Assembly (NCBI GenBank): GCA_025057115.1 | Contig: JANWWZ010000021.1 | Span: 1 to 42,551, forward strand | Direction: 5' to 3' | DNA length: 42,551 bases | From: Bernardetiaceae bacterium | Lineage (GTDB): Bacteria; Bacteroidota; Bacteroidia; Cytophagales; Thermoflexibacteraceae | Shown: one piece after another, positions 13,301 to 34,329 of the stretch | How the letters are laid out: each line of letters starts with the position of its first letter | Position numbering within the stretch: position 1 is the first letter of the stretch | Program-made: the position numbers and the translations under genes | Notes under the pieces: generated by a model | Database searches by the model: none | Told to the model about the DNA's origin: nothing | Seen by the model: the letters and a program-made list of their open reading frames with translations, nothing else

Positions 13301-13624
13301 TTATTTCTTGCCTTTGGTAGCCGTTTGGTTAAGTATTTGACCAATGAGCGCTGCTTTTGCAAAATCTCCTTGCACCTTGAGTTTGCCCAATGCAAAAGCA
13401 GTAAAATTGCTCAATTCACCAGAAAGGATTTTATAGGCTGTATCCAAAGTAAGGTGAATGGTGCATTCGGCTTCTTGGTTAGAATGGTCCACGTAAGCTG
13501 GCTCTTTGTTGGCATGAACGTAAACCGTTCCTTCAGGGAAGGAAAATTTAACCGTTCCTTTGAATTGAGAATTTTCCGCCACAATGGCGCGCACCTCTTC
13601 AGTGAATTGTTCAAGCGTGGGCAT
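13301..13624 (-). CDS. SCP2 sterol-binding domain protein
   Basis: A 107-residue single-domain protein of the SCP2 family, which binds lipids or acyl-CoA in a hydrophobic pocket. The pattern FKGTVKFSFPEGTVYVHANKE, followed by AECTIHLTLDTAYKILSGEL and ALGKLKVQGDFAKAAL, is typical of the fold. The C-terminal region is helical. I chose the ATG at 13624 (MPTLEQFTEEV). The longer frame from 13705 adds a cysteine-rich stretch not seen in the family. It is the first gene of the five-gene minus-strand operon that continues through nuoC and pabB. Confidence 0.88.
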   Translation of the reverse strand: MPTLEQFTEEVRAIVAENSQFKGTVKFSFPEGTVYVHANKEPAYVDHSNQEAECTIHLTLDTAYKILSGELSNFTAFALGKLKVQGDFAKAALIGQILNQTATKGKK

Positions 13625-13641
13625 ACAGCAGCATTTTTTAC

Positions 13642-13649
13642 CAAAAGTA
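13642..13649 (-). promoter_or_regulatory. -7-type box of the SCP2-nuoC-pab operon
   Basis: Reading on the minus strand, TACTTTTG matches TAnnTTTG and lies 17 bp before the SCP2 start codon. A TTG at the standard spacing is missing, so this is a partial promoter. Confidence 0.4.
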
Positions 13650-13730
13650 CTACTTTGGCCAAAAATGAGGCAGTAGTAAGCGGCAGATTTTTTGCACCTT
13701 TTCACCGAAGCGCTTTACTACCTTTGAGGA

Positions 13731-15285: not shown

Positions 15286-15451
15286 ATAACTGTGGAAAAT
15301 GCTACGCTGTAAATTTTTCTCCAAGCTGACTTTTTCTTCTTACGACCACTTTTTTTAGATTTAGCCAAAAAATTGCACGCGTTCGCTTTTACCCCTGCTA
15401 AAGATATGCCAGATGCTTCAGGTGCCTTTGCTTCTAACTGGAAAAGAGCAT

Positions 15452-16558
15452 ATGAAAGGGTTACTTTGCGGATTTTTGTTCCTCAGTTCGGCAGCTTTGT
15501 TTCCGATCATGCTTAAAAATGCACCCGTAAAGAATGATTTATTTACGCAATGTAAAAGAGATTATCAAATTAGCATGATACATCTTCTCATGGACAGCCT
15601 TGCCCGCACAGGAAGATACAACGGCATTTTGTTAGTAGCCGATGAAGGACAAATAGTGTTTAAAAAAGCCTACGGCTACTCTAAAGTAGAGCCAGGTAAG
15701 GCTTTTACTATCGATACAGAGATGCAACTGGCTTCTATTTCTAAGCCTTTTACGGCAGTAGCTGTTTTAATGCTCATTGAGCAAGGGGCTTTGCACTTTG
15801 ACGACGAGATACGCAAATACTTGCCTGAACTACCTTACAAAGGCATTACAATACGGCATTTGCTCAATCACACTTCTGGCTTGCCCGATTATCTGAATCG
15901 ACCTCATGTTTTTGCAAAATATTTTCGCAACAAAGAGTACCTCACTAATGAGGATTTGCTAAAAATATTGGCTAAATATCGCATTCCACTGGAATTTGCA
16001 CCTGGCAAGAAACACCGCTATTGCAATACGGGCTATGCCCTGCTGCCTTTGATTGTAGAACGCGTTACAGCGCGCTCCTTTACCGACTTTATGCAGGAAA
16101 ATATTTTTGACAAAGTGGGCATGTGTTCTACTTATCTCTACAGCCCTCAACGCCATGCAAAAATGAAGCGAGAGAAAGAAAGCCGCGACGGAATTCTTGG
16201 CGACAAAGGCATTTTCTCCACCGTAGACGACCTTTTTAAGTGGGATAGAGCTCTTTATACCAACTTGCTAGTTAGTCAAAAAACTTTGCAAGCCGCTTTT
16301 GAAAGAGGCGTTACCTTAAGCGAGCAGCGCTTTAACTATGGCTATGGGTGGCGCATTGCAGAAACCAATCTGGGCGAGAAGATCATTTACCACAAAGGAT
16401 TTTGGCAAGGGGCTGCTCCTATATTTGCCCGCTTTATCGATTGCAATCGCACTATTATCTCACTTCATCATGCTAACCGCGTCAATTCTTGGTATTTGGT
16501 AAATGCTATTAACTACATTCTCAATGCCAGTCAAGCAAAATGCGCTCATTGTTATTAA
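15452..16558 (+). CDS. Exported serine hydrolase, class C beta-lactamase/PBP-like
   Basis: A secreted or periplasmic serine hydrolase of the beta-lactamase/DD-peptidase family. The nucleophile motif is S-I-S-K in QLASISKPFTA, the second motif is the Tyr-x-Asn in HRYCNTGY, and the third is HKG in IIYHKGFWQGA. HTSGLPDY is the usual family segment between them. A signal peptide is seen at the ATG 15452 (MKGLLCGFLFLSSAALFP). An ATG at 15413 would extend this poorly. The substrate is unknown: family members include DD-carboxypeptidases, esterases and beta-lactamases. It ends 25 bp before the first of three tandem STAS-like genes. Confidence 0.88.
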   Translation: MKGLLCGFLFLSSAALFPIMLKNAPVKNDLFTQCKRDYQISMIHLLMDSLARTGRYNGILLVADEGQIVFKKAYGYSKVEPGKAFTIDTEMQLASISKPFTAVAVLMLIEQGALHFDDEIRKYLPELPYKGITIRHLLNHTSGLPDYLNRPHVFAKYFRNKEYLTNEDLLKILAKYRIPLEFAPGKKHRYCNTGYALLPLIVERVTARSFTDFMQENIFDKVGMCSTYLYSPQRHAKMKREKESRDGILGDKGIFSTVDDLFKWDRALYTNLLVSQKTLQAAFERGVTLSEQRFNYGYGWRIAETNLGEKIIYHKGFWQGAAPIFARFIDCNRTIISLHHANRVNSWYLVNAINYILNASQAKCAHCY

Positions 16559-16583
16559 GTTACTAACTTTTCAAGAAAAGCCT

Positions 16584-16991
16584 ATGCAAGTCTATCAAAG
16601 CCGCTATGCAATGATGGAGGTATTTCCTGATAGACAATTCAACAAGGTTACTTGGCTGCCTACTACCGCTCAAATGTCTGAAGAAGAATTTAAAATTGAG
16701 CTGTTGAACCAAAGCCAAGCAGCTGCCCCTTATGGATATGCGCGCATCCTAATTGATACCTCAAAATTTTCAATGATTGTTACTCCACCTATTCAAAAAT
16801 GGGCACAGGAAAACATACACCGCCCCATCTACGAAACAGGCTTGCGCCCTAAAATAGCTTTTTTAGCAAGCGAAGATATTTTTTCACAAGTTTCCATCGA
16901 ACAAACTATGGATGAGGAAGTTGCAAACGACTTTTCTCAGATTCGCTATTTTCAAACAGAGGAAGAAGCCTTGCAGTGGCTTTTGGAGTAA
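16584..16991 (+). CDS. SpoIIAA/STAS-like protein, tandem copy 1
   Basis: A 135-residue soluble protein, the first of three tandem paralogues. All begin MQxYQSRYA and share the blocks EVFPDRQ.NK.TWLPTTA, EEEF, IDTS.F, EQTMD and FQTEEEALQWLLE. The pattern recalls the SpoIIAA-like STAS/SEC14 family common in Cytophagales, from memory. No function is known for it. I chose this ATG because it lines up with the other two copies. The longer frame from 16503 overlaps the serine hydrolase. The copy differs most from the other two, and a near-consensus -7 box precedes it. Confidence 0.8.
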   Translation: MQVYQSRYAMMEVFPDRQFNKVTWLPTTAQMSEEEFKIELLNQSQAAAPYGYARILIDTSKFSMIVTPPIQKWAQENIHRPIYETGLRPKIAFLASEDIFSQVSIEQTMDEEVANDFSQIRYFQTEEEALQWLLE

Positions 16992-17114
16992 TTTCGGTGT
17001 GCTAACCAAGTCGATCCTTGGCACTTAAGTAAGCACTGTTCGCCATATTTTTGATGCAAATCAGACTAAATGATTATTGTCGGTAATTTTGCCAAACTTT
17101 TTGCACAAGAGCCT

Positions 17115-17522
17115 ATGCAACTTTATCAAAGTCGTTACGCGATTGTGGAGGTATTTCCCGATAGGCAATTAAACAAAATTACTTGGCTGCCTACTACTGC
17201 TCATATGACCGAAGAAGAATTTAAAACTGAATTGTTGAATTATAGCCAAACAATTGCACCTTACAAGCATGTGCGCACCTTAATTGATACTTCACAATTT
17301 TTAATGACCATTACGCCAGCAACTCAAGAATGGGTACAGAACAATATCCATCGTCCTGCTTATGAGGCGGGCTTGCGTCCTAAGATAGCCTATTTAGTGA
17401 GCAGAGACCTCTTTTCACAAATTTCCATTGAACAAACCATGGATGATGGAGTAGCGAAGGAATCCTTTCAGACTCGTTATTTTCAAACAGAGGAAGAAGC
17501 CCTGCAGTGGCTCTTGGAGTAA
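17115..17522 (+). CDS. SpoIIAA/STAS-like protein, tandem copy 2
   Basis: A 135-residue paralogue of the preceding and following genes, about four residues in five identical to copy 3 by hand alignment. It keeps all shared blocks: EVFPDRQLNKITWLPTTA, LIDTSQFLMTITPATQEW and the EEALQWLLE tail. The ATG at 17115 aligns with the other copies. A TAATTTTG box (17084-17091), an exact -7 match, lies 23 bp upstream, so this copy probably has its own start site. Just after its stop, the sequence resembles the start of the DUF72 gene that follows copy 3. Confidence 0.8.
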   Translation: MQLYQSRYAIVEVFPDRQLNKITWLPTTAHMTEEEFKTELLNYSQTIAPYKHVRTLIDTSQFLMTITPATQEWVQNNIHRPAYEAGLRPKIAYLVSRDLFSQISIEQTMDDGVAKESFQTRYFQTEEEALQWLLE

Positions 17523-17647
17523 TTTTCAATGGCTTTGGATGTGCCAATAGCATTTATTGTTAACGTGCTATTTTCGCCTCCTTCTATCGAGCTAAATACA
17601 CCGATTGTTGCTAAATTTAAGAATGCTTCACAAATTCAAAAAAGGCT

Positions 17648-18052
17648 ATGCAAATCTATCAAAGCCGTTACGCGATTGTGGAGGTATTTCCCGACAGGCA
17701 ATTCAACAAAGTTACTTGGCTGCCTACTACTGCTTATATGACAGAAGAAGAATTTAAAACTGAACTAATAAACCAAAGTCAGGCAGCTGCCCCTTATGGA
17801 CATACGCGCATCTTGGTGGACACTTCGCAATTTTTAATGACTATTACGCCAGCAACTCAAGAATGGGCACAGGAGAATATTTATCGCCCTATCTATGAGG
17901 CAGGCACACGTCCTAAGGTAGCCTATTTAGTGAGCCGAGACCTCTTTTCACAAGCTTCCATTGAACAAACTATGGATGAAGGAGTAACAAAGGAATTTCA
18001 GATGTGTTATTTTCAAACAGAGGAAGAAGCCTTGCAGTGGCTTTTGGAGTAA
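17648..18052 (+). CDS. SpoIIAA/STAS-like protein, tandem copy 3
   Basis: A 134-residue paralogue, one residue shorter than the others because of a deletion near the end (KEFQMCYF against KESFQTRYF). Shared blocks are intact and nothing suggests decay. The -7 region is more degenerate (TAAATTTA) than that of copy 2. The stop codon is 6 bp from the DUF72 start, so these two are probably translated together. That pairing looks ancestral, because the remnant after copy 2 has the same layout. Confidence 0.8.
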   Translation: MQIYQSRYAIVEVFPDRQFNKVTWLPTTAYMTEEEFKTELINQSQAAAPYGHTRILVDTSQFLMTITPATQEWAQENIYRPIYEAGTRPKVAYLVSRDLFSQASIEQTMDEGVTKEFQMCYFQTEEEALQWLLE

Positions 18053-18058
18053 TTTCCA

Positions 18059-18967
18059 ATGGACTTTGGCAAGCTAGACGACATTTCTGGCGTGGATTTT
18101 ACGCTCCCTCCTGATAGAACCAATTGGTCTAACCTACCTCCGCGTCAAGGTCAGGTGCAGGTGTATGTAGGCTGTCCAGTTTGGGCGTGTAAAGAATGGG
18201 TAGGGAGTTTATATCCACCTCATGCGCGGGCAAAAGACTACTTATATTACTACAGCCGGCAGTTTAACGCTATAGAGCTCAACTCAACGCATTACCATAT
18301 CCCAGACAATGCTACTATTAGCCGTTGGATAGAGGTAACGCCCAGTTCTTTTCGCTTTTGCCCCAAAATTTTGCAAGAAATCAGCCATCGGCTGATGTTG
18401 CGCCCCTCTAAAGAAGTTATTCAAACGTTTTGCAAGCCAATAGCCGCCTTAGGCAATCGGTTGGGCATGGCTTTTTTGCAATTGCCTCCTTCTTTTGCTC
18501 CTGCACAATTGCCCGTTTTAGCGGCATTTTTGAAAGATTTTCCCAGAGAAATACCTCTTGCAGTGGAGTTTCGCCATCCAGCTTGGTTTCAAGGTCCTGC
18601 TGGCTACCAACCTTTTGACCATGCAGCGGCTTTGCTAGAACAACAAAATATTAGCACTGTTATTTGCGATGTAGCAGGCAGGCGCGATGTACTGCACCAA
18701 AGGCTCACCACTGGCAAAACCTTAATCCGATTTGTAGGCAACGGACTCCATCCCAGTGATTACACGCGCATCGATGCGTGGGTAGAACGTTTAAAAGAAT
18801 GGATCGATAAAGGAGTGGAGCAGGTGTATTTCTTTGTGCACGAGCCTAATAACGCGTTGGCTCCTCAGCTGGCTAACTACTTGATCAACAAGTTAAATGA
18901 ACGAGTGGGTACCTCTTTGCGACCTTTGCAAAAAAGCAATGTTGATCCTCAAATGCACTTGTTTTAA
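18059..18967 (+). CDS. DUF72 domain protein
   Basis: A 302-residue protein of the DUF72 (YecE-like) family, a TIM-barrel-like fold of unknown function. Family features are VGCPVWACKEWVGSLYP, YSRQFNAIELNSTHYHIP, FRFCPKILQEISH, GMAFLQLPPSF, the AVEFRHPAWF motif, FVGNGLHPSDYTR and YFFVHEPNN. It has no signal peptide. It begins 6 bp after the third STAS-like gene, which suggests translational coupling. Its 3' part is followed after 22 bp by hisH. Confidence 0.9.
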   Translation: MDFGKLDDISGVDFTLPPDRTNWSNLPPRQGQVQVYVGCPVWACKEWVGSLYPPHARAKDYLYYYSRQFNAIELNSTHYHIPDNATISRWIEVTPSSFRFCPKILQEISHRLMLRPSKEVIQTFCKPIAALGNRLGMAFLQLPPSFAPAQLPVLAAFLKDFPREIPLAVEFRHPAWFQGPAGYQPFDHAAALLEQQNISTVICDVAGRRDVLHQRLTTGKTLIRFVGNGLHPSDYTRIDAWVERLKEWIDKGVEQVYFFVHEPNNALAPQLANYLINKLNERVGTSLRPLQKSNVDPQMHLF

Positions 18968-33566: not shown

Positions 33567-34016
33567 TCAGCTACTTGCTTCTGGAAGGGAAAGTTTCTTT
33601 TTCATGCGACAGATTTTGATAGAGCCCCTTTGCTCTACCGTAATTTCATCCATAATCTGCTTGACCAAAAAAAGCCCCAAGCCATTTCGCTTTTTTTCTA
33701 AGATAATTTGCCGCACATCTGGCACTTGGTATAAAGCCATGTTAAAATGGTCTGGTTTGCTGTCTTGCACTTCAAAATTAATTTCATTAGGGAGGCGAAT
33801 GATTTTGACCTCAATGGCATGGGCATCGTTGCAGCAATGGGCATGAATGATCAAATTGGCACAAACTTCATCAAGGGCAAGGATGAGCAAGTATTGCTGC
33901 TCCTCTGGAATTGCCCACTTGCTAAGAGCATTGCGTGCAAACTGGCGCAAGTGGCTCAGCGAATCCCGTTTGCAACTCAGGTTAATGGAATGCTCCCATT
34001 GCTGACTTTGCTTCAT
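33567..34016 (-). CDS. RsbW-like anti-sigma regulatory kinase
   Basis: A 149-residue GHKL ATPase of the HATPase_c_2 group, similar to serine kinases RsbW/SpoIIAB that bind sigma or other partners and phosphorylate a STAS antagonist. The N box is LALDEVCANLIIHAH and the G2-type box is RNGLGLFLVKQIMDEI. The region between them is degenerate relative to RsbW. The overlapping upstream STAS gene is its likely partner. No PP2C phosphatase or sigma factor lies in the window. The start at 34016 overlaps the STAS gene by 35 bp, which suggests tight translational coupling. Confidence 0.85.
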   Translation of the reverse strand: MKQSQQWEHSINLSCKRDSLSHLRQFARNALSKWAIPEEQQYLLILALDEVCANLIIHAHCCNDAHAIEVKIIRLPNEINFEVQDSKPDHFNMALYQVPDVRQIILEKKRNGLGLFLVKQIMDEITVEQRGSIKICRMKKKLSLPEASS

Positions 34017-34329
34017 GAGTAGAGTTATAAATAGTAATAAGTTGGTCCAAACCGAGCATTTTTAAGGCGTTGTTTATTTTAGGGTTTAGGTTACAGAGGG
34101 CAAAAGAAATGTTTTTTTCTTGGCACTCCCCGTGCCGTGAAATCAAGACGCCAATGCCTGGGGAGGAAGTGTATTCCAACTTAGCGCAATCAATTAGCAC
34201 TGCTTTAGGCTGTTGGGCTATGACTTCTCCCATTTTATTGTCAAACGCTAATGCCGAGCTGGCATCTAACTCACCTTTGAGCGATACAATTACCACGCCC
34301 TTTATTTGTTGCGTACTTATTTCTATCAT
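33982..34329 (-). CDS. STAS-domain anti-sigma factor antagonist
   Basis: A 115-residue single STAS domain, SpoIIAA/RsbV type. Conserved features are VVIVSLKGELDASSA, the AVLIDCAKLEYTSSPGIGVLIS core and KMLGLDQLITIY. The likely phospho-acceptor is Ser56, just before Pro57-Gly58. Most antagonists have an alanine or serine in place of the proline, so phosphorylation may be altered. It is the first gene of a two-gene unit with the RsbW-like kinase, in a partner-switching module whose target is unknown. Confidence 0.88.
   Translation of the reverse strand: MIEISTQQIKGVVIVSLKGELDASSALAFDNKMGEVIAQQPKAVLIDCAKLEYTSSPGIGVLISRHGECQEKNISFALCNLNPKINNALKMLGLDQLITIYNSTHEAKSAMGAFH

What the first reader, a model, noticed from the sequence alone, without database searches (positions are those of the whole stretch)
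16584..18067. Triplicated STAS-like gene with a remnant of the downstream gene start between copies
Three paralogues lie in tandem with a regular 531/533-bp period. After copy 2 the sequence preserves the start context of the DUF72 gene, so the duplicated unit was STAS-like gene plus the 5' end of DUF72. All copies are intact and have diverged mainly in a few positions, which suggests they were retained by selection, possibly as dosage or as specialised partners of one pathway.
Basis: partly seen in the sequence, partly recalled or inferred. Interest (0 to 1): 0.6.

Follow-up and report, generated by a model that had tools for sequence, protein, structure and literature searches.

The report
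Tandem-triplicated SpoIIAA-like gene with scars
A small gene for a probable membrane-switching, lipid-type binding protein was copied twice in a row in one bacterial species, and the gaps between the copies still hold decayed pieces of the two neighbouring genes, so the copying steps can be read; this is an ordinary but unusually legible case of gene duplication.

Summary
The triplication is real. Three head-to-tail genes (16584-16991, 17115-17522, 17648-18052; spacing 531 and 533) are 72-83% identical in protein and form one clade. The three held congeners each have one orthologue at this place, between the PF00144 hydrolase and DUF72 genes, so the triplication looks private to this species. 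The DUF72 remnant after copy 2 is confirmed and extends to about 73 nt. Two duplications with different breakpoints are the simplest reading. The frames stayed open while the spacers decayed; dN/dS is about 0.31 (neutrality rejected overall, individually only on copy 1's branch). The proteins have the SpoIIAA-like fold (PF11964 sub-threshold; model closest to 2q3l, Z 10.9) and lack canonical STAS features. The family is large here (17-20 matches per genome in this genus) and duplicates in tandem repeatedly: a new member of a known kind. Function (membrane-switching binder of a hydrophobic ligand, kept for dosage or range) is inference.

The parts
15413..16558 (+). upstream PF00144 (beta-lactamase-like serine hydrolase) gene; donor of the 3' tail found in both spacers
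   Evidence: Pfam E 2.6e-57; syntenic in G001, G002, G003
16474..16583 (+). native 3' tail of the upstream gene plus 25-nt leader of copy 1 (source of the remnants)
16584..16991 (+). copy 1, SpoIIAA-like protein, 135 aa
17003..17114 (+). spacer 1-2: decayed copy of the upstream gene's 3' tail and leader (73 of 114 columns identical)
   Evidence: score 54, shuffle maximum 20, 0 of 500
17115..17522 (+). copy 2, 135 aa
17523..17595 (+). spacer 2-3, left part: decayed DUF72 5' end, with the equivalent of its ATG at 17529
   Evidence: 50 of 81 columns, score 32, 0 of 500; ranks with orthologous junctions
17587..17647 (+). spacer 2-3, right part: decayed upstream-gene tail and leader; the junction lies in or near the 9-nt overlap with the left part
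   Evidence: 40 of 62 columns, score 30, shuffle maximum 27, 0 of 500; unrelated 5' flanks at most 22
17648..18052 (+). copy 3, 134 aa, followed after 6 nt by the intact DUF72 start
   Evidence: model mc752aeac3dc6
18059..18967 (+). DUF72 gene; donor of the remnant in spacer 2-3
   Evidence: PF01904 E 3.1e-56; orthologues adjacent to the single gene in the congeners

Best explanation
An ancestral operon segment, PF00144 hydrolase - one SpoIIAA-like gene - DUF72, underwent at least two head-to-tail tandem duplications in this species after it split from its three held congeners. One duplication copied about 110 nt of the upstream gene's 3' end plus the whole SpoIIAA-like gene and ended within about 10 nt after its stop codon (junction 1-2). 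The other copied about 60 nt of that tail, the gene and about 65 nt of DUF72 coding sequence (junction 2-3). Each unit therefore carried its own leader and start codon. The trapped fragments then decayed while the three reading frames were kept open, probably with some gene conversion between copies. Shown: junction anatomy, one copy in the three congeners, open frames, omega below 1 overall. Inferred: that the copies are translated from one operon mRNA, and that the proteins act as small cytoplasmic SpoIIAA/CRAL-TRIO-type proteins that bind a hydrophobic ligand and/or the membrane through the alpha2/alpha3 lid, extra copies being kept for dosage or slightly different ligand or partner range (about 0.4 for this functional part).
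For: Spacer alignments with shuffle and real-flank controls. Single syntenic gene in 3 of 3 congeners. Trio clade 100/99, within a six-row clade with the three congener genes 99/93. M0 omega 0.308, LRT p 5.2e-8. Neutral simulation: no premature stop in 0.5%, 1.7% and 5.1% of 20,000 runs for copies 1, 2, 3 at their branch dS, and neither stop nor frameshift in 0, 0 and 0.05%. Site-pattern switches 49 against 64.6 expected, reached by 3 of 5000 shuffles, fitting gene conversion. Fold: AlphaFold pLDDT 86.5, pTM 0.82; top VIA-align match 2q3l, Z 10.9, 114 residues, 3.2 A. Near-invariant residues among 78 members fall in alpha2 (P68 72, Q71 71, W73 75 of 78) and alpha3 (E106 67, Q107 66 of 78), the lid helices of the Shewanella proteins (PMC2954212).
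Against: The order of the two events is not settled: topology tests exclude none of the three arrangements, and the favoured tree (copies 1+3 together; 100/89) is not the one that either simple order predicts. Branch tests reject omega = 1 only for copy 1 (2dlnL 17.7; copies 2 and 3 only 1.8 and 1.4). The two spacers' tails match the native tail but each other only weakly (score 13, reached by 20 of 400 shuffles), and neither spacer matches the congeners' flanks, so the remnants are tied only to this genome's own flanks. Foldseek alone gave no PDB match at E 0.001 or better, and the Pfam score is below its cut-off. No neighbour or assay points to a ligand.
Confidence: 0.75

Rival explanations
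1. The three genes are canonical STAS anti-sigma-factor antagonists multiplied as parallel inputs to one partner-switching pathway, such as the STAS/RsbW-like pair at 33567-34329.
For: Shared SpoIIAA-like fold, with STAS proteins at Z up to 9.7 in the same list and RsbS first in the Foldseek list (E 0.017); a PF01740 STAS plus HATPase_c_2 pair lies 15.5 kb away.
Against: No PF01740 hit listed at E up to 10 for the three proteins (HMMER's filters drop most matches above 0.1), while the canonical STAS scores 2.5e-22; no DSSG motif in the copies and no conserved Ser/Thr at the alpha2 start, where P68 is near-invariant; the best second-look structural match is 2q3l, not a STAS antagonist.
Confidence: 0.12
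2. The copies are passive, drifting duplicates: neutral tandem duplication not yet lost.
For: Matches with internal stops occur in relatives (for example G002:C19, G003:C13, G007:C30). Single-branch tests for copies 2 and 3 do not reject omega = 1.
Against: Trio omega 0.31, p 5e-8; all three frames open after dS of 0.15-0.37 per branch, while spacer 1-2 differs from its source at 32% of ungapped columns.
Confidence: 0.1
3. Old triplication present in the genus ancestor, homogenised by gene conversion here and reduced to one copy in the three congeners.
For: Mosaic site pattern suggests some conversion.
Against: Needs a reduction to one copy in the congeners without leaving spacer scars: only 1, 6 and 6 nt lie between the gene and DUF72 in G002, G001 and G003.
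Confidence: 0.08

Closest known systems
SpoIIAA-like / PF11964 (2q3l is titled DUF3478 family) proteins YP_749275.1 (2ook) and YP_001095227.1 (2q3l) of Shewanella (PMC2954212; seen: outline with abstract, part 1 of 2 of the Results, the Discussion)
   Same: Strand and helix order; best second-look structural match Z 10.9; a Trp near the start of alpha2 and one in alpha4 in both (equivalence inferred, no residue-level alignment seen)
   Different: Only 10% (2q3l) and 16% (2ook) identity; score under the Pfam cut-off; large paralogue set and tandem arrays here; no natural ligand known for either
STAS anti-sigma-factor antagonists (SpoIIAA, RsbS; PF01740)
   Same: Overall beta/alpha fold
   Different: No PF01740 match, no DSSG motif, no kinase gene next to the trio
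Bacterial tandem gene duplication with later concerted evolution (PMC6053082, seen only in the search listing with the start of its abstract; the general mechanism is recalled)
   Same: Head-to-tail copies more alike to each other than to orthologues, mosaic divergence
   Different: Here both spacers still identify the breakpoints in the neighbouring genes

Membership tests
Tandem gene duplication array | head-to-tail copies of one orientation with regular period | tested here: met
   531 and 533 nt
Tandem gene duplication array | copies closer to each other than to any orthologue | tested here: met
   clade 100/99 in a tree of 78 members
Tandem gene duplication array | junction remnants of flanking sequence | tested here: met
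   both spacers
PF11964 SpoIIAA-like | profile score over the curated cut-off | tested here: not met
   21.3-23.6 bits against 25; 12 of 13 members of A2 match at E up to 0.01, best 1.1e-6. So called SpoIIAA-like by fold and weak profile match, not filed as a curated member
PF11964 SpoIIAA-like | strand/helix order b1-b2-a1-b3-a2-b4-a3-b5-a4 | tested here: met
   model elements, with one more strand segment before alpha1 and a short extra helix 26-30
PF11964 SpoIIAA-like | closest solved fold is 2q3l/2ook | tested here: met
   ranks 1 and 4 of the VIA list, Z 10.9 and 9.3; neither is among the 50 rows shown by Foldseek
PF11964 SpoIIAA-like | open/closed lid switch and hydrophobic pocket | not testable with these tools
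   needs structures and ligand assays
STAS anti-sigma antagonist (PF01740) | PF01740 profile match | tested here: not met
   none listed at E up to 10
STAS anti-sigma antagonist (PF01740) | conserved Ser/Thr phosphoacceptor (DSSG, motif recalled) at the start of alpha2 | tested here: not met
   no DSSG-like motif in the three copies; 4 of 78 members match the loose pattern, at least two of them (L010, L011) as DTSA at the end of beta3. Copies do carry Thr at 67, which is S or T in 32 of 78; register inferred from secondary structure
STAS anti-sigma antagonist (PF01740) | binding to an anti-sigma kinase | not testable with these tools
   -

The most novel reading that the evidence does not exclude
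Bernardetiaceae-type bacteria keep a large, quickly turning-over set of single-domain SEC14/SpoIIAA-like proteins (2-38 matches per genome in 13 genomes) that grows by tandem duplication and diversifies by mutation in the lid region plus gene conversion, giving a repertoire of ligand or membrane-surface binders; the window's trio is a recent step of that process caught in the act.
Probability: 0.2. Interest if true: 0.5.

Novelty: new member of a known kind. Interest (0 to 1): 0.27.

Why it matters
It is a clean, readable example of two tandem duplications with different breakpoints inside a compact gene cluster, with decayed pieces of both neighbours as internal neutral yardsticks beside frames that stayed open. 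It also points to an expanded SpoIIAA-like family in Cytophagales about which the held library says little: 'PF11964' is in none of its papers, 'DUF3478' in one, 'SpoIIAA-like' in seven.

Tried and rejected
Single-unit duplication model (gene plus DUF72 start for both junctions): rejected, since spacer 1-2 has an upstream-gene tail and no DUF72 match. Order of the two events: topology tests undecided. Remnant matches to the congeners' own flanks: none beyond chance. Spacer tails against each other: weak (score 13, 20 of 400 shuffles). In one search the real-flank pools gave 7 of 346 flanks at or above the DUF72 score and 4 of 313 at or above the spacer 2-3 tail score, with duplicates removed and names shown, traced those at or above threshold to orthologous junctions, one other DUF72 locus or the window's own junctions. 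PDB sequence search with A2: only two terminase sequences at E about 0.6, taken as chance. Foldseek alone: no match at E 0.001 or better; its top rows mix RsbS, STAS, nucleases and enoyl-CoA hydratases. The PF11964 model itself finds only 3 matches in the own genome, none over the cut-off. A functional hint from neighbours of the other paralogues: 8 of 11 fetched regions of the own genome looked at by eye, no common partner seen. A first script without all loci failed and a first topology script failed; both were redone. Biopython's YN00 gave higher ratios (0.39-0.64) than NG86 (0.16-0.25) and its ML (0.26-0.39); my own three-copy ML gave 0.31. The tree had not settled its bootstrap (correlation 0.970) and has few columns for 78 rows. 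The copy-1 clustering test (7 of 14 residues in 59-72 against 14 of 120 elsewhere, Fisher p 0.0015) was chosen after looking at the data. The clustering of site patterns could also come from local relaxation in one copy.

Full report
What is there. Three genes of 135, 135 and 134 codons lie head to tail at 16584-16991, 17115-17522 and 17648-18052, start-to-start 531 and 533, between a PF00144 serine-hydrolase gene (15413-16558) and a DUF72 gene (18059-18967; Pfam). Copy 1 is 72% and 75% identical in protein to copies 2 and 3; copies 2 and 3 are 83% identical. Nucleotide identity is 78-85%, so an assembly artefact is unlikely. Of 134 aligned residues, 44 vary.

Relatives. The window is contig C13 of a 3.0 Mb genome. 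Its three held congeners each carry one gene (44-48% identical to copy 3) between the same two genes. One of them is probably the Bernardetiaceae MAG SKYG123: locus L104 lies on a contig of the same length, 104,977, and at the same place as the match in G002:C11. In a tree of 78 members the three copies form a clade (100/99) that joins the three congener genes (99/93). The triplication is therefore private to this species among the genomes held. A profile scan of the DUF72 loci finds three family genes at the own locus, one at each of the three congener loci, and none within the flanks (up to 1.5 kb) of the 23 other DUF72 loci, L041-L063, so the adjacency itself looks genus-specific.

The spacers. 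Anchored alignments with dinucleotide shuffles and with real flanks as controls give the anatomy. Spacer 1-2 is, for 112 of its 123 nt, a decayed copy of the upstream gene's last 85 bases plus its 25-nt leader: 73 of 114 columns identical, score 54, shuffle maximum 20, 0 of 500. The alignment reaches the end of the 110 nt offered. It has no DUF72 remnant (score 8, reached by 87 of 500). Spacer 2-3 starts with 73 nt that match the DUF72 start (50 of 81 columns, score 32, 0 of 500) and ends with 61 nt that match the upstream tail (40 of 62 columns, score 30, shuffle maximum 27, 0 of 500). In the pool of 507 distinct 3' flanks, the others at 32 or more were the native junction, the three congener junctions and one other DUF72 locus, L042. 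In the pool of 446 5' flanks (spacer 1-2 is not in it) the only others at 30 or more were two of the three congener junctions (the third, L011, scored 20), and unrelated flanks reached 22. Against the congeners' own flanks neither spacer scores beyond chance, and the two spacers' tails match each other only weakly (20 of 400 shuffles reach the score).

Age and selection. A codon model on the three copies gives omega 0.308, against omega = 1 with p 5.2e-8; NG86 pairwise ratios are 0.16-0.25, Biopython's ML 0.26-0.39 and its YN00 0.39-0.64. With one branch at a time fixed to 1, only copy 1's branch is rejected (2dlnL 17.7; copies 2 and 3 give 1.8 and 1.4). Simulated neutral decay at each branch's dS leaves no premature stop in 0.5%, 1.7% and 5.1% of 20,000 runs, and neither stop nor frameshift in 0, 0 and 0.05% (the frameshift rate rests on the 4 gaps and 35 mismatches of the spacer 1-2 alignment; with half of the dS the last figures for copies 2 and 3 rise to 0.33% and 2.5%). 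The pattern of which copy differs changes 49 times along the gene against 64.6 expected (3 of 5000 shuffles), which fits gene conversion but does not prove it. The order of the two events is open: codon, DNA and protein topology tests keep all three trees (AU p of the weakest tree 0.20, 0.12 and 0.067), although the large tree joins copies 1 and 3 (100/89).

The family. A profile of 13 members finds 2 to 38 matches in each of the 13 genomes of the family held, 191 in all, 19 in this genome and 17-20 in the four genomes of this genus (fragments and matches with stops included). The listed rows show at least 11 same-strand arrays with gaps of at most about 300 nt: three in this genome (C13, C77, C7), one in G002, three in G007, one in G008, one in G009 and two in G011. 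Several array partners that were in the tree are sisters (G007 C9 and C20, G011 C179, and G025 C6 of another family), while others (the G008 C80 and G011 C11 pairs; the own C7 pair) join distinct lineages side by side. Tandem duplication is thus a habit of this family, and the window's trio is one more case.

What the protein is. Pfam gives PF11964 SpoIIAA-like at 21-24 bits, under the cut-off of 25; 12 of 13 aligned members match it at E up to 0.01. The AlphaFold model (pLDDT 86.5, pTM 0.82) has the SpoIIAA-like order of strands and helices, and its best match in the second look is 2q3l (Z 10.9, 3.2 A over 114 residues), followed by STAS and, lower, CRAL-TRIO/SEC14 structures. Foldseek alone found nothing at E 0.001 or better. 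Part 1 of the Results and the Discussion of PMC2954212 describe two Shewanella proteins of this kind with open and closed forms of the alpha2/alpha3 lid and a large hydrophobic cavity, and suggest a membrane-associated carrier of nonpolar ligands or an interfacial enzyme. Here P68, Q71 and W73 (72, 71 and 75 of 78) and E106 and Q107 (67 and 66 of 78) are conserved in alpha2 and alpha3, and W131 in alpha4 is kept in 77 of 78. No PF01740 match and no conserved Ser/Thr at the alpha2 start speak against the phospho-switch reading.

Verdict. It is a well-preserved record of two tandem duplications in a compact gene cluster and a new member of a known kind. The function stated here (ligand- and membrane-binding SpoIIAA/SEC14-like switch protein, extra copies for dosage or range) is inference from fold and conservation.

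Noticed in passing
33567-34329 (-): A canonical STAS protein (PF01740, 33982-34329) overlaps by 35 nt an RsbW-like HATPase_c_2 protein (33567-34016): a probable true partner-switching pair, unlike the trio.
   Followed up: partly
17529-17741 (+): The trapped DUF72 start still supplies an ATG that opens a 70-codon frame running out of frame into copy 3; probably not a gene.
   Followed up: partly
L064:3791-4219 (-) (G000 contig C7): Near the C7 tandem pair lies another 142-aa protein that by eye resembles the same kind of domain but was not marked by the family profile.
   Followed up: no
G002:C19:370112-370438, G003:C13:54521-54886, G003:C23:39559-39947, G007:C30:45898-46290: Family members with internal stops or split frames in relatives, suggesting birth and death of copies.
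   Followed up: no
13301-13705 (-): SCP-2 sterol-transfer domain protein (PF02036, E 6.6e-9), another small lipid-binding-type protein about 3 kb from the trio.
   Followed up: no
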